Of a stretch of 64,000 bases of DNA, positions 26,778 through 36,123 are shown one piece after another. The DNA is from Sinisalibacter aestuarii (GTDB lineage: Bacteria > Pseudomonadota > Alphaproteobacteria > Rhodobacterales > Rhodobacteraceae), in contig NZ_BROH01000010.1 in the NCBI RefSeq assembly GCF_027923545.1, positions 1-64,000 of the forward strand, given 5' to 3'. How positions within the stretch are numbered: the first letter of the stretch is position 1; each line of letters opens with the position of its first letter. The notes below the pieces were generated by a model. That model saw only the letters and a program-made list of their open reading frames with translations. It made no database searches and was not told the DNA's origin. The position numbers and the translations under genes were made by a program.

Positions 26778-27734
26778 TCATTGCCTACTATCGCTCACGT
26801 TTGCATCTTGCCCGACCATTGGAAATGCCCCGCGCCATTCACCCTTTTCCACAATGCTTTCGACACATTCCTGTAGTTTCATGCTGATCGCAGCACAGGC
26901 ATGACTGAGTGTCTTGCGCTCCCGTGCGACCAGAAACACGTCTCTGAACAGGCCATTTCCATCAAAGTGCGAGATGCGAAATCTGCCCTTGTCTTTGGCA
27001 TGGGTCACGGCATGGAGCGGCAGAACCGAAGAGCAGTGCCCTGCAGCGACGAGCCGTTTGATGTTCACGAACGAATCCAGCTCGTTGATTGGTTGCAGCG
27101 TGGCGCCAACTGCGGCGGCTTCCTGTTCGAGCTGCATCCGCAGGCCATGCGTGCGGCTTGGCAAGACCAGATTGCGTGCACAGAGATCCCGCATCGACAC
27201 CCTTTCACCAATCTCTGCGCCGTGTGGTGAGACGACCACCAGCTCCTCTCGCAGCAAAGGCTCAGACGATAGCTCGCCGCTGGGGTCTCGGAGGTAAAGG
27301 ACGGCAATGTCCACAAGCCCCTCCTTGAGCCAGTCCAGAACGAAGCCACTCATCGCCTCCGCAATCGTAAGCTTGATGCCCGGGAGTGCATCCTGAGCCG
27401 ACAGGATAAGTGGCACCGACAGAATCTCGCTGATCGTCGCCGGAAGGCCGAGCCGCACTTCGCCTCTCGGATCGCCTTCAAGGTTTCGGATGTCGTCGCG
27501 GGTTCGTTCAAATTCGGAGAGCAGAAGCGTCGCGCGTTGTCGAAGCAAGCTGCCTGCCTCTGTCAGCGCAACCCCGCGTGGATGTCGCCTGAACAACTCA
27601 ACGCCAAGTTCCGTTTCCATGTTTCGGAGGTGATGAGTCAAGGCAGGCTGCGCAACATTCAGGCGACGCGCCGCAGCAGAGAGCGTGCCTTCTTCTGCAA
27701 TCGCCAGGAAGTATCGAAGCTGCTTCAGGTCCAT
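26778..27734 (-). CDS. LysR-family regulator of the acyl-CoA (itaconate-type) cluster
   Basis: 318-residue LysR-type regulator. The N-terminal winged helix MDLKQLRYFLAIAEEGTLSA and ARRLNVAQPALTHHLRNMET is canonical; the effector domain follows from about residue 90 (RGEVRLGLPATISEILSVPL). I preferred the MDLKQLRYF start over an ATG eight codons upstream, because family members begin there. It is divergent from the acyl-CoA dehydrogenase gene with a dyad between. In Pseudomonas and Yersinia, LysR proteins in this position control itaconate degradation. Codon use and GC content are lower than in the flanks, suggesting the cluster was acquired. Confidence 0.85.
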   Translation of the reverse strand: MDLKQLRYFLAIAEEGTLSAAARRLNVAQPALTHHLRNMETELGVELFRRHPRGVALTEAGSLLRQRATLLLSEFERTRDDIRNLEGDPRGEVRLGLPATISEILSVPLILSAQDALPGIKLTIAEAMSGFVLDWLKEGLVDIAVLYLRDPSGELSSEPLLREELVVVSPHGAEIGERVSMRDLCARNLVLPSRTHGLRMQLEQEAAAVGATLQPINELDSFVNIKRLVAAGHCSSVLPLHAVTHAKDKGRFRISHFDGNGLFRDVFLVARERKTLSHACAAISMKLQECVESIVEKGEWRGAFPMVGQDANVSDSRQ

Positions 27735-27771
27735 TTTCGCGAATCCCATAACAAGCATGTATGGATGTGAT

Positions 27772-27788
27772 ACAAACCATATATTTGT
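27772..27788. promoter_or_regulatory. Dyad, candidate LysR-type binding site
   Basis: ACAAA, 7 bases, TTTGT is a 17-bp interrupted palindrome in the 112-base gap between the divergent LysR gene and the acyl-CoA dehydrogenase gene. LysR sites are often T-N11-A dyads of this size. Assignment is by position. Confidence 0.5.
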
Positions 27789-27846
27789 TTGATTGGAAGG
27801 GTAGCCCTATTGTTCTGCTCCGAGCGAGACCCAGAGGAGACATGCC

Positions 27847-29010
27847 GTGCGCCATCTAACCCATGACCCCTATGAGGACATCCGGGAAGGAATCCGCGCG
27901 CTGTGCCGTGAATTTCCCGATGACTACCATCGCAAGGTCGACGAGGATCGCGCCTACCCGGAAGCGTTCGTGAAGGCGCTGACAGATGCGGGCTGGATGT
28001 CGGCGCTGATCCCGGAGGAATATGGAGGTTCTGGCCTCGGCTTGACCGAAGCGTCGGTCATCATGGAAGAGATCAACCGGGCGGGCGGAAATTCCGGCGC
28101 GTGCCACGGTCAGATGTACAATATGAACACCTTGATCCGTCATGGGTCGGAACAACAGCGCCGGGAATACTTGCCGCGCATTGCCGCGGGCGAGCTCCGG
28201 CTTCAGTCCATGGGTGTGACCGAACCGACCACGGGAACCGACACGACAAAGATCAAGACGGTCGCCGTGCGCAAAGGCGACCGCTATGTGATCAACGGGC
28301 AAAAGGTCTGGATTAGCCGGGTACAGCATTCGGATCTGATGATCCTGCTTGCCCGGACGACCCCTCTGGCCGACGTAAAGAAGAAATCTGAAGGTCTGTC
28401 CCTGTTCCTTGTGGACATCGCGGACGCGATGAAGAGCGGCATGTCGGTGCGTCCGATCCCGAACATGGTCAACCACGAGACGAACGAGCTCTTTTTCGAC
28501 AACGTCGAAATCCCCTCAGAAAACCTGATCGGGGAAGAGGGGATGGGGTTCAAGTACATCCTGACGGGACTGAACGCGGAACGCGCGCTCATCGCCGCGG
28601 AATGCATCGGCGACGGCTACTGGTTCACCGATCGGGTAACCTCCTACGTGAACGAGCGTGAGGTTTTCGGGCGCCCGATCGGACAGAACCAGGGCGTACA
28701 ATTCCCGATCGCCGAAGCGTTCATCGAAGTCGAGGCCGCAAATCTCATGCGTTACGAAGCCTGCGCGCTCTACGACCAGGGCGAACCTTGCGGCACCGAA
28801 GCGAACATGGCGAAATACCTCGCCGCCAAGGCGAGCTGGGAGGCTGCAAACGCCTGCATCCAGTTTCACGGTGGGTACGGCTTTGCCAGCGAGTATGATA
28901 TCGAACGCAAGTTCCGCGAGACGAGGCTGTATCAGGTCGCACCGATCTCAACCAACCTGATCCTGTCCTATGTCGCAGAGCACGTTCTTGGAATGCCGAG
29001 GTCATTCTGA
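27847..29010 (+). CDS. Acyl-CoA dehydrogenase family protein
   Basis: 387-residue flavin-dependent acyl-CoA dehydrogenase-like enzyme starting with GTG after a good GAGGAG site. It shows the flavin-binding MGVTEPTTGTDTTKIKT, the AERALIAAECIGDGYWF helix, REVFGRPIGQNQGVQFPIAE and the C-terminal FHGGYGFASEYDIERKFRET. The classic catalytic Glu of YEGT is absent (the segment reads YQVAPIST). By eye the Glu in GLNAER aligns with the base used by isovaleryl-CoA dehydrogenase. A comparable gene accompanies the itaconate genes of P. aeruginosa, where its substrate is unsettled. Confidence 0.9.
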   Translation: MRHLTHDPYEDIREGIRALCREFPDDYHRKVDEDRAYPEAFVKALTDAGWMSALIPEEYGGSGLGLTEASVIMEEINRAGGNSGACHGQMYNMNTLIRHGSEQQRREYLPRIAAGELRLQSMGVTEPTTGTDTTKIKTVAVRKGDRYVINGQKVWISRVQHSDLMILLARTTPLADVKKKSEGLSLFLVDIADAMKSGMSVRPIPNMVNHETNELFFDNVEIPSENLIGEEGMGFKYILTGLNAERALIAAECIGDGYWFTDRVTSYVNEREVFGRPIGQNQGVQFPIAEAFIEVEAANLMRYEACALYDQGEPCGTEANMAKYLAAKASWEAANACIQFHGGYGFASEYDIERKFRETRLYQVAPISTNLILSYVAEHVLGMPRSF

Positions 29011-30119
29011 TGGATAGTCCTGAAACGCTCCCGCTCGCCGGCCTGCGCGTCCTTGCCATCGAGCAAGCGGTTGCCGCTCCTTTCGCAACGTTGCGCCTTG
29101 CCGACGCCGGTGCGGAGGTCATCAAGATCGAGCGCCCCGAAGGTGACTTTGCCAGGGGCTACGATGCTGCTGCCAACGGTCAGTCCAGCTATTTCGTGTG
29201 GCTGAACCGTGGGAAGACCTCGCGCGTTCTCGACCTGAAGACGGCGTCGGCGAAGGCCGAGATCGAAAAGCTCCTGGAAAGTACCGACGTCCTTGTACAG
29301 AACCTCAAACCCGGAGCGCTCGAGCGCCTTGGTTTCGGGATTGAGCGGCTGCAACAGGACTACCCCCGCCTCATCACCTGCTCCATATCCGGATACGGTG
29401 AAACCGGCCCGATGTCTGATCGCAAAGCCTACGACTTGCTCATTCAGGCCGAAGCCGGTCTTTGTTCCCTCACGGGCGGCCCGGACGAACCGGCACGTGT
29501 CGGTATTTCGGTTATCGACATCGCCACCGGCGCGACAGCTTACTCCGCCATCCTCGAAGCGCTTATCGGCCGCTCGATATCCGGGCGCGGATCGCATATC
29601 GGCATTTCGATGTTCGACGTGACCGCCGAGTGGCTAACCGTCCCGCTCCTGAACCACGAGGCCGGAACGCCGCCAAGGCGGATGGGCCTCAGGCACCCCT
29701 CGATTGCACCTTATGGGGTATTCGAGACCAAAGACGGCGCGCAGATCCTGCTGGCCGTACAAAGCGATCGGGAATGGCGCGAACTCTGCACAGGCTTCAT
29801 AGGGAACCCCGGACCGGGCACCGATACCCGTTTCGCGACAAACGTCGAACGTGTTCGAAACCGTGAAGCGACCGACGCCATCGTGGCCGCCGCCCTTAAG
29901 CGACTGTCGCTTGAAAAAGCCCGCGCAGGGCTGATGGCGGCGAACGTAGCGTTCGCAACGGTCAACGACATGGAGGGGCTCTCCAATCATCCCCACCTCC
30001 GGCGCATCACGGTGGAAACGGAGAACGGCCCGGTATCTTATCCCGCACCCGCCCCGCGGTTCCTCGACGCTCCGCGCGCATATGGCCCTGTGCCGGGCCT
30101 GAAAAGCCTCGAAGAATGA
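29010..30119 (+). CDS. ict: CoA transferase family III, probable itaconate CoA-transferase
   Basis: 369-residue CaiB/BaiF (class III) CoA transferase. The N-terminus LPLAGLRVLAIEQAVAAPFA and RLADAGAEVIKIERPEGDFA are diagnostic, and the catalytic aspartate is the Asp in ARVGISVIDIATGATAYSAI (about residue 170). It shares one base with the upstream stop (TGATG) and overlaps the next gene by 4. Clustering with a mesaconyl/itaconyl-type hydratase and a CitE-like lyase points to activation of itaconate (methylenesuccinate). A succinyl-CoA:mesaconate or other dicarboxylate transferase remains possible. Confidence 0.8.
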   Translation: MDSPETLPLAGLRVLAIEQAVAAPFATLRLADAGAEVIKIERPEGDFARGYDAAANGQSSYFVWLNRGKTSRVLDLKTASAKAEIEKLLESTDVLVQNLKPGALERLGFGIERLQQDYPRLITCSISGYGETGPMSDRKAYDLLIQAEAGLCSLTGGPDEPARVGISVIDIATGATAYSAILEALIGRSISGRGSHIGISMFDVTAEWLTVPLLNHEAGTPPRRMGLRHPSIAPYGVFETKDGAQILLAVQSDREWRELCTGFIGNPGPGTDTRFATNVERVRNREATDAIVAAALKRLSLEKARAGLMAANVAFATVNDMEGLSNHPHLRRITVETENGPVSYPAPAPRFLDAPRAYGPVPGLKSLEE

Positions 30120-30958
30120 CCGGCGACATGGGTGCGGATCTTCGGGACTGGATCGGCAAGACCGAAGTCGTCGAGGACATTCTCACACCCGGCCTCGTCG
30201 CGCGTTTCAACGCGACGCTCGACAGAGACTCGGCAACCGCGATCGGCGCGCCGGCACCGGAACTCATCCATTGGTGTCTCTGCACCGACACGATCGCCAC
30301 CAACGCCCTTGCACAGGACGGCCACCCGCCACGTGGCGCCTTTTTGCCGCCGGTCGGTCTTCCGAGGCGCATGTGGGCGGGCGGCGAGATCAATCTTCTC
30401 GCTCCCCTCGGAATTGGCGATATCGTGACACGCACCTCGGAGATCGAGAACATTGTCGAGAAAGCGGGCCGTTCCGGCCCGCTGACCTTCGTGACCCTAC
30501 GCCACAAGATCACATCGGACGGCAGACTCGCAGTCAACGAACGCCAGGACATCGTCTACCGCGGTCACGTCGCAAACGCCCAAGGCGCCCAAACGCCTCC
30601 CCCGGCACCGATGGGAACCCACAGCACGCAGATCGAGATCAACGAGGCCCGACTGTTTCGGTATTCCTCGATTACCTTCAATGCGCATCGCATTCACTAC
30701 GATGCGCCATATACCAAGGGGGTCGAAGGCTACGGTGGCCTTGTGATCCATGGTCCCCTGCAGGCGACTCTCTTGGCGCTCTTCGCGCGCGAGCTGTCGC
30801 AGCGGCCGTTTTCCCGCTTCACATATCGGGGCATCTTCCCTGCCATCGGCACCGGCTCTCTGACGCTGCACGCTTCGTCCGAAGGCAACGAAATGAAGCT
30901 CTGGACCGCGTTCGGGAACGGGCCGGTTTCCATGGAGGCCAGCGCAGGATGGGAGTGA
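30116..30958 (+). CDS. ich: MaoC/FAS1-type dehydratase, probable itaconyl-CoA hydratase
   Basis: 280-residue double hot-dog protein of the mesaconyl-C4-CoA hydratase (HTD2-like) type. GAFLPPVGLPRRMWAGGEIN is the conserved loop, FRYSSITFNAHRIHYDAPYT with GVEGYGGLVIHGPLQATLLA is the MaoC-like catalytic region (Asp/His pair in NAHRIHYD). In itaconate catabolism this enzyme hydrates itaconyl-CoA to citramalyl-CoA. It begins inside the CoA-transferase stop codon. Mesaconyl-C4-CoA hydratase of other pathways has the same fold, so the assignment relies on the neighbours. Confidence 0.8.
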   Translation: MTGDMGADLRDWIGKTEVVEDILTPGLVARFNATLDRDSATAIGAPAPELIHWCLCTDTIATNALAQDGHPPRGAFLPPVGLPRRMWAGGEINLLAPLGIGDIVTRTSEIENIVEKAGRSGPLTFVTLRHKITSDGRLAVNERQDIVYRGHVANAQGAQTPPPAPMGTHSTQIEINEARLFRYSSITFNAHRIHYDAPYTKGVEGYGGLVIHGPLQATLLALFARELSQRPFSRFTYRGIFPAIGTGSLTLHASSEGNEMKLWTAFGNGPVSMEASAGWE

Positions 30959-31644
30959 CCGATACAATGCGGGCGCCGATCTTCGTCCCCGCAACCCGCC
31001 CCGAGCGTTTTGCCAAGGCGGCATCCTCGGGTGCTGATGCTGTCATTTTGGACCTGGAAGACTCCGTTCTTCCGGAAGACAAGGATGACGCTCGGCAACA
31101 GCTGATTGGCGGGTTCGGCGAGCAGATTGTTCTGGTTCGCATCAACGCGCATGGCATGCCCTGGCATGAGGCAGATCTCGCGGCGATTTCGGCGATAGAC
31201 CTCGATGGGGTCATCGTCCCGAAGGCCGAAGATCCCGCGACGCTCGCGCGGATCGCGGCGACACTTCCCGAAAAGACGGCGCTACTCGCACTCATCGAAA
31301 CCGCCCGTGGGCTTGCGAATGCACGTGACATTGCGGCGACAGCGGGTGTCACTCGGCTGGTCTTCGGCTCCGTTGATTATTGCGCCGATTTGAACATGGA
31401 TCACGAGCGCAGTCTTCTGCAGTCCGCCCGATCCGAATTGGTTCTCGCCTCTCGCTTGGCCGGGATCGCCGCGCCCGTCGATGGTGTTACGCTTCGGATC
31501 GACGATTTGGGCGAGATCGCATCCGATGCGCGCCACGCCAAAGCGCTCGGCATGACCGGGAAACTGTGCATACACCCCGCCCAAATTGAATCCGTCCTAT
31601 CCGCTTTTGGTCCGAGCCAGGTGGAAATCGACTGGGCCAAGTGA
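30949..31644 (+). CDS. ccl: CitE-like lyase, probable citramalyl-CoA lyase, C-terminus shortened
   Basis: HpcH/HpaI aldolase-fold protein. APIFVPATRPERFAKAASSG, ADAVILDLEDSVLPEDKDDA, VLVRINAHGMPWHEADL, VFGSVDYCADLNMD and GKLCIHPAQIESVLSAFGPS follow in the CitE order. It would split citramalyl-CoA into pyruvate and acetyl-CoA. At 231 residues it lacks roughly 40 C-terminal residues that relatives have, ending EIDWAK where an IS3 remnant begins, the stop codon being part of the IS end. GTG at 30955 (overlapping the upstream stop) and ATG at 30967 are alternative starts. Activity may be reduced or lost. Confidence 0.75.
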   Translation: MGVTDTMRAPIFVPATRPERFAKAASSGADAVILDLEDSVLPEDKDDARQQLIGGFGEQIVLVRINAHGMPWHEADLAAISAIDLDGVIVPKAEDPATLARIAATLPEKTALLALIETARGLANARDIAATAGVTRLVFGSVDYCADLNMDHERSLLQSARSELVLASRLAGIAAPVDGVTLRIDDLGEIASDARHAKALGMTGKLCIHPAQIESVLSAFGPSQVEIDWAK

Positions 31645-31915
31645 CCTGCTCCCCGGAAAAGTCCTTGCATTGAGGTTAGCCTGTTCGCCAACTGAGGAGA
31701 CAGACGATGAAGAGAAGCCGATTCAGCGAGCATCTGTTCACCAACCTGTGCCATGCCCGCAGGCTGATCGGGGCGTCGCGTGACGACTACACCATCACCG
31801 CCCCCCACACGAGCCTCGGCGGGCGCACCCTGTGGGAGTATCACCAACCGTCGAAAATGGACCAAACCCTGAACAGAACCATCCTGAAAACGCGGAGTTG
31901 AAGCGGAACAGGTCA
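31642..31915 (+). mobile_element. Internally deleted IS3-family element (274 bp)
   Basis: The ends match as inverted repeats: TGACCTGCTCC on the left and GGAACAGGTCA on the right (10 of 11 bases). A 4-bp direct duplication, CAAG, flanks it (31638-31641 and 31916-31919). Inside is a 64-codon frame joining the first residues of an IS3 OrfA (MKRSRFSE) to the last ~55 residues of the OrfB integrase. More than 1 kb of the element is gone, so it can move only if a full copy supplies transposase. Confidence 0.85.
31707..31901 (+). pseudogene. IS3 transposase OrfA-OrfB deletion fusion
   Basis: 64-codon remnant. MKRSRFSE is the usual start of IS3-family OrfA. The remainder, HLFTNLCHARRLIGASRDDY then APHTSLGGRTLWEYHQPSKM, is the C-terminus of the DDE integrase OrfB (relatives read PHSSLGG...P.E), including the region just past the last catalytic Glu. 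The catalytic core is missing. The frame has stayed open across the deletion, which suggests the event is fairly recent. Confidence 0.85.
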
Positions 31916-32017
31916 CAAGATCTGATGGTGCATTCAGGGAGGTAGCACCCATTGTGTTGGGGACCTATCGCGATACGCAAAAGGCACTTCAGGACCAATG
32001 CGGACGGCCTCGTTGAC
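31916..32017. other. Unassigned stretch between IS remnant and CRISPR repeat
   Basis: About 100 bases with no supported gene. On the cas (minus) strand it lies just beyond the single repeat, where spacers should be. The first 32 bases next to the repeat (31986-32017) have the right length and position for one spacer, but no second repeat follows. Confidence 0.4.
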
Positions 32018-32046
32018 CAGTTCATCCCCGCGCGTGCGGGGAACAG
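32018..32046 (-). CRISPR. Single surviving type I-E CRISPR repeat
   Basis: A 29-base sequence with the I-E repeat architecture: TTCATCCCC, then the hairpin CCCCGC-GCGT-GCGGGG, then GAACAG on the plus strand, equivalent to the E. coli-type repeat ending in GGGGAAC. It lies 58 bases past the cas2e stop, the normal position of the first repeat behind a leader. There is no second copy anywhere in the window, so the array has been lost. Confidence 0.75.
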
Positions 32047-32104
32047 ACTGGCTGCAACCTATTGGTCCGCAAGAAGATTCACAATATCAAAGAGCGTACC
32101 GCCG

Positions 32105-32272
32105 TCAGCGGTCATTCTTCGGCGGGCGTGTGGAAGCAAAGGAAACGAGTTTCAAACCGTGGAAATCGACTGGCATACGGCGATTGGTGCCGACGGTCGC
32201 AAAGTCGTAGCCTTGATCGGTCGGGGCTTTCCAGATCATCACCGCGTCGCCCCGGTCGATATAAGCGGTCAT
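32105..32272 (-). pseudogene. cas2: 3' end of cas2e
   Basis: The last ~55 codons of a type I-E Cas2. MTAYIDRGDAVMIWKAPTDQ, then GYDFATVGTNRRMPVDFHGL and KLVSFASTRPPK, match the conserved Cas2e C-terminus (NAVM.W....E.GFDFRT.G.N.R.PVD.DGL.LV.F in relatives). The N-terminal half, including the RAMP-like beta strand and catalytic Asp region, is missing. Upstream sequence is cas8e in another frame, so a deletion joined the two genes around 32270. Confidence 0.8.
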
Positions 32273-33258
32273 CCTGCCACGATCAGATGAGCCTGCGCTC
32301 CATCGCTTCGCTGATCCCAGAGGCGCAGAGAACGGGCGGTTTCGGTCAACCTTCCTTCGTAGTCCTGCACGACGACGCGCAGCCAGTTTCGGTAGCCGAG
32401 CGGCCCCGGTTTCGGATGTTTCGGCAGCGGCTCGGCGCCTTCCTTCATCCTGTAGTATGGCGTCAAGGGATGCACCCAATCGGCATAATTCACCCCATAG
32501 GGGCGCTGAACCACGCCGGTGACAAGCCCATCCTCCTCGACGAGCCGCAGTCGCCGAGGCATCCCGAAAAACGCCTCCGCCTCCGTGCCCTGCACCGGAT
32601 ATCGTTCGCTGCCATTCTTTTCCGAAGTCCGCGTTGGGTTCATCCACGGCAGCGTCGAGGGATCGCCAGGATGGCCATCAGGCACGTAGGCCCAGACAAG
32701 CGACCAGAGCCCGAGACCGGGATCAATCAGGGTAGCCATCGGCCCACCGCCACGCATCGACGTGCGCATTCCCGCACCACCAGCAGGCGCATGTGCCTGA
32801 AAGGTGTAGAGCGCCATCGCCGCCAGTGCCGGACCGAGGGCTGCATAACGTCCACGATGCACCATCAGATCGGCGTTGTTCCGGGCGGCATTCGCGCCCG
32901 CGCTGTCGATGAACAGCATCTCCGGCGGATTTGGCGCTCCGTCGAGGTCTTCCAGATCCTGCAGGAACCGGGGCCCGTCGCCGAACACATTGAAGGCGGG
33001 GGCACAAGACGCGAGCCGGTCCCGCAAACGATCAGGGTCCGGGGCCTGCCGATCCTCCCAGTCGTCAGCGTTTGCGGGCGGATCGGCGAGGAAAGCCAGC
33101 CCGATCAGGAACTCGAGGCAACCAAGATTGAGATCAGGGCGCGGTCAGTCGGGCCCGAGAATGTCAGGACCGGCCATCTCCCAGGGCGCAATCACCCGGC
33201 GCACACCGTCCTTGGTTACAACGGGAATCCAATTGTCGTTTATCAAGTTTAGGGGCAC
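32269..33258 (-). pseudogene. cas8e: Truncated, nonsense-mutated cas8e (cse1/casA)
   Basis: Large subunit of type I-E Cascade. From a GTG at 33258 the frame reads LNLINDNWIPVVTKDGVRRV and IAPWEMAGPDILGPD, then TGA at 33145-33147 (codon 38), then PRPDLNLGCLEFLIGLAFLA in the same frame. Relatives carry Trp there, so a TGG to TGA change is likely. Downstream DLMVHRGRYAALGPALAAMA, LYTFQAHAPAGGAGMRTSMR and GGGPMATL are clear Cse1. The frame ends after AHLIVAG, just before the conserved YDMDNMK region, at the deletion junction with cas2e. cse2, cas7, cas5, cas6 and cas1 are gone. Confidence 0.85.
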
Positions 33259-33313
33259 GAAATCAGACCACCTACTACATCTAGCGGAATGCTGCGAGCC
33301 TTCCCCTCACCTG

Positions 33314-35815
33314 TCAACCCGTTTCGGCGCTCCTTTCGGCAAACACCAGCCCCTCGGCCGCCCGGTAATGCAACCCCTCGCAAATCCGGCCATCTGCCCC
33401 CACCGGGCACAGGGTCACCGCCTCACGCCGCCACTCGGGCCAGCCCTTTGTCACCGCCAGAATCTCGGGCACATCCTGATCCGGGAGAGCCAGTTTCTCC
33501 GCCCGCCGCGCGGCCACGCTGACTTCGGACAACACCCAAAGCTCGTCTTCCGTCCTATCGGCCTCATCCGCCCAGGGAACCACCCGCCCGTTCTCCCACC
33601 GGGCCAGGACAAGCACTTTCTGCTCCACCCCGAGACGTGTTGGATAGTCGCGGTCGTCCGCGCCGCCGCCGCCGTCGCGGTAGTCCCGGTCGAGGTCGAT
33701 CCGGTTCATCCCGGCCAAAGTCCGCGCGCCGTAGCCCGCCCCGATGCGTTCCTGTTCCGCCTCCTCCAACTGCGGTGGAACCGGGTCCGCGTTGGGCCCT
33801 TCAACGGCCTCGATCAATAGACGCAATCCATGCGGCGTTTCGATCATACCAGCCGAGAACAGCGCCTGCGCGGTGCGCCATTGCTGATCGAGCGGATACA
33901 CCCAGGCCCCACCGTCGAGCACGCGATGCAGCCATGTGCTGTCGTCCACCGCGGCAGGGTCCGGGGAGAGGACGTGCAGCACCGGTGCCCTAACCGGGCG
34001 GCTTTCGGCTGGTCGCAGGTCCATGTGTCGCCAAAGCCGCCCCGCGCGCTGGATCAGGGCCGCGATGGGAGCAAGATCAGACACCATCACGTCAAAATCG
34101 AGATCGAGCGAGGATTCCACGACCTGCGTGGCCACCAGCACGCGCCCGGCCCCGCCCGTTCGCTCCTTTCCGAACCGCTCCAGGATGCCGCCCTGATGCG
34201 CGAGGCGGTCGGCCAGAGCGAAGCGCGCGTGCAGCAGGTCTGCCTCGACCCCGCGATCGCGCAAGGCCCGCACCGCCGCCATCGCATCGTCGACCGCATT
34301 GCGCACCCAGACGCAGGCTGCCCCTTGCGCCGCCGCCCCTTGCAGCAGGGATACGACCGCCTCGTCGTCTTCCAGTCGCTCGACCGTGATGGCCCCCCGC
34401 AGGTCTGGCATCGGCGCGACAGTCTCAGGCGCCGCGCCCGCAAGGGTGAGCGCGGGGTAAGGCGCCAAGGCGGGCGGCTCCGCGCCCCAGGCCCGCAAAA
34501 GCATGTCTCGTTGCGCGACGGGGAGCGTCGCCGTCAACAGAATAGCCGAGCCACCGTTTTGCCGATGGGAACGCAAGAGGGTCGCCAGCAGTTCCGCCAT
34601 ATATGGGTCGCCAACTTCGTGCACCTCGTCGACGATCAGGATCTTCGACGACAACCCATACAGCCTGAGCGGCGCATGTTTGGCCTTCAGCACCGCCAGC
34701 AGCGCCTGGTCGATCGTCCCGATCCCCACGTTCGCCAGAAGCGCCTTTCGGCGATTGTCGCTCAACCATGCTGTCGGACCGGGCTCGTCTTCGTGCCGCA
34801 TCGCGGTCAGCGCGAGATCACGCCACTCGCGCGAGATCCCTGCACGCCCGTGCGCGAGGGTCAGGCTCGGAGGTGTGGCAAAAAGCCTGCCGAGATCGGG
34901 CCTGAGGCGGGCGAACATCGCGTCCGCCGTCGCCATCGTCGGCAAGGCAAAGAACAGCCCCCGGCCCTTGCCCGCCTGCAACATCCGCTGCGCAAGCACC
35001 AGCGCGGCCTCGGTCTTGCCCGATCCCGTCCCGTCTTCCATGATCGCCAGTACAGGCCCGTCTGGCAGAGGCACGTCAGCGGCATGCGCCTGCATCGGGC
35101 GAGGTGTGTGGCGAAACAGAGACGTTTCGGTCACGCGGGCAGGCACGAGCCCGGTTTCCTGCACGGCACGGGCGGCCCGGTTGCGCACCGCATCAAGGTA
35201 ATCTGCGAGTGCAAGCCCCGGCGCTTCGGCCGGAAACCACTCCGCATTGGAGCCAATCCAGTCCGCCGCCGTGATGAACCCCGGCAGCCACCATGACAGG
35301 GCGCGCACCTCGTCGCGCGACATTTCGGCGAGCGATCCATTCGGCCAGAGCTTCCGAAATGCCCGGATCACCTCGACCGCATCGGAAAACGCCTCCGGCC
35401 CTGCCGCGCGTTTCATCCGCAGGAAGGCGTCACCGCTCTTTTCCGGAGGTCGCCCGTGATGCCCTGCCACCGCGCCGTAGAGCCACTTGCGTCTCTGCCC
35501 GTCCAGCCCAAGGCACTCGAACTCGTGATCGGCCTCCCGCAAGAAGACTTCGGTCACCTCCCAGTGCCTGCCAAAGACCTGCGCCCTGCCCTCCGTCAGC
35601 ATGGATCGAAAAGCCTCGTTGATCTTGCCGAGATCGTGGAGCGCGGTCAGGAATACGATGGCTTGTCGTCTCGGCGTATCGAATTCTTCGTTTTCAATCA
35701 GGGCTTCCGCGACGGCCGCGACATCAAGCATGTGGTAAACTGCCGGATGGGCCGGAAGGCCCTCGCCGGACGGTGATTTTCCGGGCCAACCGGTCAGCAG
35801 GTGAAGCACGCTCAT
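33314..35815 (-). CDS. cas3: Cas3, HD nuclease-helicase of type I-E CRISPR
   Basis: 833-residue Cas3. The N-terminal HD nuclease has His29 (AVYHMLD) and the FLTALHDLGKINEAF motif with HD at residues 60-61, followed by AGHHGRPPEKSG. The superfamily 2 helicase has Walker A MEDGTGSGKTEAALVLAQRM (about residue 250), the DEVH box ILIVDEVHEVGDPYMAELLA, motif III ILLTATLP and motif VI LIQRAGRLWRH. No frameshift or stop is visible and length is near that of family members. It is upstream of the cas8e relic with a 55-base gap. Without Cascade it has no known recruiter, so it is an orphan. Confidence 0.93.
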   Translation of the reverse strand: MSVLHLLTGWPGKSPSGEGLPAHPAVYHMLDVAAVAEALIENEEFDTPRRQAIVFLTALHDLGKINEAFRSMLTEGRAQVFGRHWEVTEVFLREADHEFECLGLDGQRRKWLYGAVAGHHGRPPEKSGDAFLRMKRAAGPEAFSDAVEVIRAFRKLWPNGSLAEMSRDEVRALSWWLPGFITAADWIGSNAEWFPAEAPGLALADYLDAVRNRAARAVQETGLVPARVTETSLFRHTPRPMQAHAADVPLPDGPVLAIMEDGTGSGKTEAALVLAQRMLQAGKGRGLFFALPTMATADAMFARLRPDLGRLFATPPSLTLAHGRAGISREWRDLALTAMRHEDEPGPTAWLSDNRRKALLANVGIGTIDQALLAVLKAKHAPLRLYGLSSKILIVDEVHEVGDPYMAELLATLLRSHRQNGGSAILLTATLPVAQRDMLLRAWGAEPPALAPYPALTLAGAAPETVAPMPDLRGAITVERLEDDEAVVSLLQGAAAQGAACVWVRNAVDDAMAAVRALRDRGVEADLLHARFALADRLAHQGGILERFGKERTGGAGRVLVATQVVESSLDLDFDVMVSDLAPIAALIQRAGRLWRHMDLRPAESRPVRAPVLHVLSPDPAAVDDSTWLHRVLDGGAWVYPLDQQWRTAQALFSAGMIETPHGLRLLIEAVEGPNADPVPPQLEEAEQERIGAGYGARTLAGMNRIDLDRDYRDGGGGADDRDYPTRLGVEQKVLVLARWENGRVVPWADEADRTEDELWVLSEVSVAARRAEKLALPDQDVPEILAVTKGWPEWRREAVTLCPVGADGRICEGLHYRAAEGLVFAERSAETG

Positions 35816-36049: not shown

Positions 36050-36123
36050 GCGGGCGTTGTGTAATGGTAAGACCCTTGCCTTCCAAGCAAGAGATACGGG
36101 TTCGATTCCCGTCGCCCGCTCCA
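36050..36123 (+). tRNA. tRNA-Gly (anticodon TCC)
   Basis: A complete cloverleaf: acceptor GCGGGCG pairs with CGCCCGC (36113-36119), D-loop with GTAATGGTAA, anticodon stem-loop CTTGC-CTTCCAA-GCAAG giving TCC, T-arm ACGGGTTCGATTCCCGT, discriminator T and an encoded CCA. A terminator-like hairpin follows at 36177-36200. Decay of the neighbouring cas locus stops short of this gene. Confidence 0.95.

What the first reader, a model, noticed from the sequence alone, without database searches (positions are those of the whole stretch)
32018..35815. A type I-E CRISPR-Cas locus in decay
The sequence shows cas3 intact, a cas8e relic, only the 3' end of cas2e and one I-E repeat. cse2, cas7, cas5, cas6, cas1 and the array are missing. 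The pattern shows a specific, recent loss by deletion plus point mutation next to an IS remnant, which offers a snapshot of immunity loss.
Basis: partly seen in the sequence, partly recalled or inferred. Interest (0 to 1): 0.75.

Follow-up and report, generated by a model that had tools for sequence, protein, structure and literature searches.

The report
A dead type I-E CRISPR-Cas locus
This stretch is the wreck of a bacterial CRISPR immune system, with one gene still intact and the rest deleted, in a bacterium that still carries a different, complete-looking CRISPR-Cas9 system; it is a well-preserved example of an ordinary kind of gene loss.

Summary
On the minus strand, in order: intact cas3 (33314-35815, 833 aa); the first 329 codons of cas8e (33258-32272) with an in-frame TGA at codon 38; a fusion point at 32269-32272; about the last half of cas2e; a leader of about 58 nt; one I-E repeat (32018-32046). 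Whole-genome searches find no Cas7e, Cas6e or Cse2 and no second Cas8e; the only Cas1 found is type II. One deletion of about 4.5 kb joined cas8e to cas2e, and only one repeat, in the leader-proximal position, is left of the array. The cell did not lose CRISPR as such: it holds a complete-looking type II system (Cas9, Cas1, Cas2, 42 repeats). And the IS remnant keeps both ends and a 4-bp target duplication 102 bp beyond the repeat, so it does not mark a deletion end. 'Recent' is only weakly supported: no other genus genome searched has the cas3. Similar end states occur elsewhere (Rhodovulum strictum: broken cas3 plus one repeat; Aliiroseovarius sediminis: cas3 alone), and cas-operon deletions leaving cas3 remnants are in print for Salmonella. 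Ordinary kind, nicely preserved; low interest.

The parts
33314..35815 (-). cas3, intact 833-aa type I-E helicase-nuclease gene
   Evidence: Open frame; Cas3_HD, DEAD and Cas3-like_C families; motifs ALHDLGK, GHHG, GTGSGKT, DEVHE, TATLP, QRAGRLWRH present and aligned with 76 relatives; 0 of 106 invariant and 2 of 191 nearly invariant sites changed
32272..33258 (-). 5' two thirds of cas8e (cse1), 329 codons from a GTG start, with an in-frame TGA at codon 38 (33145-33147)
   Evidence: PF09481 positions 1-333/450, E 2e-62, one TGA; codons checked; the Cas8e frame of relative L053 is 494 aa
32269..32272 (-). fusion point of cas8e and cas2e, possibly with a 2-nt (TG) microhomology; it makes a TGA in the cas8e frame
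   Evidence: Junction compared with 14 relatives on the cas8e and cas2e sides; TGA at 32269-32271
32105..32278 (-). 3' part of cas2e, from about residue 43-47 to its stop
   Evidence: PF09707 positions 45-86/86; tblastn with residues 43-96 of a relative's 107-aa Cas2e
32047..32104 (-). CRISPR leader between cas2e and the repeat
   Evidence: TTTGA block shared with 12 of 14 relatives' leaders; inferred cas2e start to repeat core 363 nt against 364 nt in L050 (from coordinates)
32018..32046 (-). single remaining 29-nt I-E repeat CTGTTCCCCGCACGCGCGGGGATGAACTG, in the leader-proximal position
   Evidence: first repeats of 45 relatives' arrays all end CCG, this one CTG
31920..32017 (.). sequence between the repeat and the IS duplication; no second repeat
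31642..31915 (+). internally deleted IS3-like insertion sequence with both ends, flanked by CAAG at 31638-31641 and 31916-31919
   Evidence: Parts match five other places in the genome at 75-89% identity; rve_3 at 2.8e-5, below Pfam's cut-off; ends and duplication read
36050..36123 (+). tRNA-Gly (tcc) on the cas3 side; border of synteny with the genus
   Evidence: tRNA-Gly next to urease genes also in G004 and G005, with DNA that does not match the window on the far side

Best explanation
It is the remains of a complete cas3-cas8e-cse2-cas7-cas5-cas6-cas1-cas2-leader-array type I-E locus. One deletion of about 4.5 kb joined cas8e after codon 329 to about codon 43-47 of cas2e (the fusion is shown; the size is inferred from a relative's operon), removing Cascade and Cas1. 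Separately the array was reduced to one repeat, perhaps by recombination between its first and last repeats (inferred). cas8e also carries a premature stop. The locus can no longer make Cascade, crRNA or new spacers, so Cas3 cannot be recruited to a target and the system is dead as immunity (from established knowledge of type I-E). CRISPR defence in this cell can come only from the separate type II system.
For: Fragments and order. No Cas7e, Cas6e or Cse2 (E<=1), no second Cas8e (E<=0.001), no second Cas3 (E<=1e-20) and no second I-E repeat in the genome. PF09344 finds Cas7e in 18 of 23 family genomes with I-E-like cas3, so that search works in this family. 67 of 80 named loci found by cas3 carry all eight pieces searched, usually with an array. 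Leader and first-repeat position kept. Fusion point compatible with cas8e ...GGA[TG]G and cas2e ...[TG]AC. Type II locus: Cas9 frame of 1147 aa (TIGR01865, E 5.7e-159), type II Cas1, Cas2, 42 repeats of 36 nt with 41 spacers of 29-30 nt.
Against: No strain or species close enough to show the undeleted ancestor of this very locus was found: 0 of 6 other genus genomes has the cas3, but 4 of those 6 are under 89% complete. Reads could not be checked for an assembly error, although the junction lies inside a 155-kb contig. Cas5e was not searched genome-wide. In the Cas8e, Cas7e and Cas6e searches the E. coli control did not ring, so these families miss distant members; only the Cas7e search was checked on family genomes.
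Confidence: 0.93

Rival explanations
1. cas3 outlived Cascade because it is still useful on its own (for example as a DNA helicase-nuclease outside CRISPR, or with the type II system), so the locus is a solitary cas3 under selection rather than a simple wreck.
For: At sites invariant in relatives the window's cas3 has 0 of 106 changes and its cas8e 4 of 51 (Fisher p 0.010); at nearly invariant sites 2 of 191 against 5 of 94 (p 0.041). If the cas8e changes are taken as neutral drift (8% of codons, about 4% per site), cas3 without selection would have stayed free of stops with chance 0.08 in a simulation of substitutions only. Aliiroseovarius sediminis also keeps an unbroken cas3 (2 of 191 nearly invariant sites changed) with no Cas7e in its genome (L056 = G400).
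Against: On a fixed tree the cas8e/cas3 terminal branch ratio of the window is 0.79, rank 27 of 65, median 0.71: cas8e shows no overall speed-up. A relative with all eight pieces (L106) has as many cas8e changes at invariant sites, 4 of 51. Other orphan cas3 copies are broken: one stop in Rhodovulum strictum, truncated or split in G057 and G221. A short time since the loss explains an open cas3 equally well: the chance of no stop without selection is 0.47 at 1% divergence.
Confidence: 0.05
2. Assembly artefact: the operon is intact in the organism and the fusion is a mis-join.
For: Draft genome of 50 contigs; reads not available.
Against: A mis-join would leave cse2, cas7e, cas6e and cas1e elsewhere; none is found in a genome estimated 100% complete. 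The premature stop in cas8e is independent evidence of decay.
Confidence: 0.02

Closest known systems
Complete type I-E loci of Rhodobacteraceae and their kin (for example MAG contig MPMV01000049.1, L050; Paracoccus sp., L052)
   Same: Same gene order, leader and repeat kind; L050 cas3 63% identical, cas2e piece 69% identical
   Different: The window lacks everything from the 3' third of cas8e to the first part of cas2e, and all but one repeat
Salmonella serotypes with deletions of the Cas machinery leaving cas3 remnants (PMC3356390; passages and part of Table 3 seen)
   Same: Type I-E cas genes removed by a deletion, with cas3 as the part left
   Different: [quoted passage not shown] here cas3 is whole, cas8e and cas2e ends remain, and the array is gone
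Rhodovulum strictum DSM 11289 (L087) and Aliiroseovarius sediminis N1F302 (L056)
   Same: cas3 with no other I-E gene found downstream (2.6 kb and 10 kb held) and no Cas7e in the genome; L087 also keeps a single repeat
   Different: No cas8e or cas2e pieces left; cas3 has a stop in L087; no repeat found in L056

Membership tests
Type I-E CRISPR-Cas (as origin of the remains) | Signature genes cas8e (cse1) and cse2 with I-E cas3 | tested here: inconclusive
   cas3 and the cas8e 5' part found; cse2 absent: origin is I-E, but the set is not complete
Type I-E CRISPR-Cas (as origin of the remains) | Cas2e of the CT1978 family next to leader and array | tested here: met
   PF09707/TIGR01873 match to the 3' part, followed by leader and repeat
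Type I-E CRISPR-Cas (as origin of the remains) | 29-nt I-E repeat | tested here: met
   One copy; differs only in the next-to-last base from first repeats of relatives such as L053 and L058
[quoted passage not shown]
   cas8e broken; Cas7e, Cas6e, Cse2 not found in the genome; Cas5e not found in the window
[quoted passage not shown]
   Only a type II Cas1 found in the genome; one repeat and no second
Type II CRISPR-Cas (second locus, contig C2) | Cas9 with RuvC and HNH motifs, Cas1, Cas2 and an array | tested here: met
Subtype II-C (second locus) | No fourth cas gene (csn2 or cas4) in the operon | tested here: inconclusive
   cas9, cas1, cas2 and the array follow each other without room for a further gene; 8 neighbouring open frames gave no csn2 or cas4 family, but csn2 and cas4 were not searched for genome-wide
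Type II CRISPR-Cas (second locus, contig C2) | tracrRNA | not tested
   Not looked for

The most novel reading that the evidence does not exclude
Cas3 is repeatedly the last gene kept when Rhodobacteraceae lose type I-E, and in this strain it is still under selection for a role outside I-E interference.
Probability: 0.07. Interest if true: 0.5.

Novelty: new member of a known kind. Interest (0 to 1): 0.2.

Why it matters
It is a clean fossil of how a type I-E locus dies: fusion point, leader and one repeat are all readable. It also shows that a look at one locus can mistake loss of one CRISPR system for loss of immunity. With similar remains in two named relatives it would allow a small comparative study of which cas genes go first, but it opens no new question by itself.

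Tried and rejected
Rejected: loss of all CRISPR immunity (type II locus found). Rejected: a deletion ending at the IS's present position (clean target duplication). Tried: whether type II spacers target the window; the hits shown at E<=0.1 are 12-19 nt, chance-like, and the listing was cut off by my script. Tried: dating the loss through genus relatives; none of 6 has cas3 or Cas9, so the undeleted state could not be seen. Tried: whether Rhodovulum strictum's single repeat came from recombination with a repeat in the cas3-cas8e gap; its upstream 70 nt match neither gap sequences nor main leaders well, unresolved. Tried: cas8e speed-up on a tree; none. Tried: support for first-last repeat recombination from the CTG end; 16 of 45 last repeats differ from the first, but none of the 45 ends in CTG, so this stays a guess. 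Literature: 8 searches of the open-access library, most seen as listings; the only close parallel seen was PMC3356390 (passages). PMC10333696 (passages) and PMC6867608 (passages) did not bear on it. No structure prediction was run: cas3 has solved relatives by sequence.

Full report
What is there. The window is contig C10, bases 1-64000, of a 4.12-Mb draft genome in 50 contigs, estimated 100% complete. On the minus strand between a tRNA-Gly and an itaconate-degradation-like operon lie, in order, an intact cas3, a truncated cas8e, part of cas2e, a leader and one repeat. cas3 (33314-35815) is an 833-aa open frame with HD nuclease, helicase and Cas3 C-terminal families; its motifs are those of 76 aligned relatives and it aligns with solved Cas3 chains such as 4q2c and 4qqw. 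cas8e begins with GTG at 33258, has an in-frame TGA at codon 38 (33145-33147) and stops matching at 32272, after profile position 333 of 450. cas2e survives only as profile positions 45-86 of 86.

How it was broken. The cas8e and cas2e pieces abut. In 14 relatives compared at the break, cas8e reads GGNTGG; cas2e mostly reads CAGGT followed by varied bases, and only L058 reads GTGACG there, close to the window's TGACCG. The window reads GCAGGATGACCGCT, compatible with a joint inside a 2-nt TG; the ancestral cas2e bases are inferred, since no undeleted close relative was found. In the relative L050 the distance between the same two points is about 4.5 kb (from coordinates). That one event removes the 3' third of cas8e, cse2, cas7e, cas5e, cas6e, cas1 and the first 42-46 codons of cas2e. 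The leader is still there: 12 of 14 relatives share its TTTGA block (L050 and L075 do not), and the distance from the inferred cas2e start to the repeat core is 363 nt against 364 nt in L050. So the surviving repeat (32018-32046) sits where the first repeat of an array sits. No second repeat follows, and its core occurs once in the genome. The first repeats of 45 relatives' arrays whose ends are in view all end in CCG; 16 of the 45 last repeats differ from the first somewhere, but none ends in CTG as the window's does. Recombination between first and last repeat could leave such a hybrid, and a point change would look the same.

Nothing found replaces the lost parts. Whole-genome searches give no Cas7e, Cas6e or Cse2 at E<=1, only this cas8e at E<=0.001, and only this cas3 at E<=1e-20. 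Cas5e was searched only in the window. Controls: the Cas7e, Cas6e and Cse2 searches rang in 3, 2 and 4 of 14 control genomes; the E. coli control rang for Cse2 but not for Cas8e, Cas7e or Cas6e, so the families miss distant members. Cas7e was found in 18 of 23 family genomes with the same family model, which covers the relatives that matter here; no such check was made for Cas6e and Cse2.

Not the end of CRISPR immunity. The only Cas1 found in the genome lies on contig C2 in a type II locus: a Cas9 frame of 1147 aa (the RuvC motif is at residue 79, so the true start may lie inside) with RuvC, HNH and HHAIDA motifs, type II Cas1, Cas2, and 42 repeats of 36 nt with 41 spacers of 29-30 nt. I take it for II-C because cas9, cas1, cas2 and the array follow each other directly and 8 neighbouring frames gave no csn2 or cas4. 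Of 7 genus genomes searched, only the window's own has this Cas9 or this Cas3; 4 of the other 6 are below 89% complete, so absence is weak evidence.

The insertion sequence. 31642-31915 has inverted ends (TGACCTG...CAGGTCA), parts that match five other places in the genome, and CAAG on both sides. It is a complete insertion event that later lost its middle. It lies 102 bp beyond the repeat and does not border the cas deletion. It may have come before or after the array collapsed.

Is it recent, and is cas3 still used? At sites invariant among relatives, cas3 has 0 of 106 changes and cas8e 4 of 51; at nearly invariant sites 2 of 191 (equal to the median, rank 32 of 77) and 5 of 94 (rank 4 of 69) (Fisher p 0.010 and 0.041). 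Before these counts loci with less than 93% query coverage or more than one stop were dropped: 76 of 80 kept for cas3, 68 of 80 for cas8e. The cas2e piece deviates at 2 of 22 nearly invariant sites. If the cas8e changes were neutral, cas3 without selection would have stayed free of stops with chance about 0.08. Against this, the cas8e/cas3 terminal branch ratio is 0.79, rank 27 of 65, median 0.71 (3 of 68 common sequences with very short cas3 branches left out), so cas8e shows no overall speed-up. The simplest reading is a loss young on the scale of the long branch leading to this genome; it cannot be dated.

How common. Of 394 family genomes, 33 (the window's own included) have a cas3 match at E<=1e-20. 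I searched 23 of the other 32 again for Cas7e, leaving out 9 whose best match was 32-36% identical; 18 of 23 have it. Of the five without, three have cas3 at a contig edge (G298, G093, G074) and two hold a broken cas3 (G057, G221). Of 80 named loci found by cas3 (the best 80 of 192 kept by the tool), 67 show all eight pieces searched, though in L053 only 15% of cas1 and in L072 27% of cse2 is matched. Of the other 13, ten end within about 1.2 kb of the last piece found, and three (L056, L087, L092) have at least 2.6 kb without cas genes. L087 (Rhodovulum strictum) keeps a cas3 with one stop and a single repeat; L056 (Aliiroseovarius sediminis) keeps an open cas3; neither genome shows Cas7e, whereas the genome of L092 does. 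Salmonella serotypes with cas-operon deletions that leave a cas3 remnant are in print (PMC3356390, passages).

Verdict. The kind of thing is known, so interest is low.

Noticed in passing
L034:3541-11109 (genome contig C2, about 294540-302108): Complete-looking type II (probably II-C) locus: Cas9, Cas1, Cas2 and 42 repeats of 36 nt (AGTGTAGCTGTTCAGAATTCGAGGTCCAGCCGCAAC) with 41 spacers; its Cas9 was not found in 6 other genus genomes at E<=1e-10.
   Followed up: partly
L053, L057, L058, L070, L071, L072, L074, L084, L101, L107, L114, L115, L116, L117, L126: cas3-cas8e gap: 15 of 73 related I-E loci carry one or two I-E repeat cores between cas3 and cas8e, often degenerate, in three loci two of them 60-61 nt apart. 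They look like small regulatory arrays of the CreA/CreR kind (name recalled, not tested). The window has only a 55-bp gap and none.
   Followed up: partly
L087:7034-9640: Rhodovulum strictum: cas3 with one in-frame stop followed about 90 nt later by a single I-E repeat and no other cas gene found in the remaining 2.4 kb of the contig: a similar end state to the window's, apparently reached independently.
   Followed up: partly
L053:17302-17693: Tropicimonas sp. IMCC34043 has cas1 cut to a short first part (residues 13-60 matched) and joined almost directly to cas2e, with an otherwise full operon and 5 repeats: another I-E locus losing adaptation.
   Followed up: no
window 26778-31644: LysR regulator followed by acyl-CoA dehydrogenase, CaiB-like transferase, FAS1/MaoC-like hydratase and RipC/CitE-like lyase genes: an itaconate-degradation-like operon, all matches below the curated cut-offs of NCBIfam. 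No genus match to 27847-31644 is listed, where at most 40 first-look candidates per genome were scored. The IS remnant begins at the last gene's stop codon.
   Followed up: no
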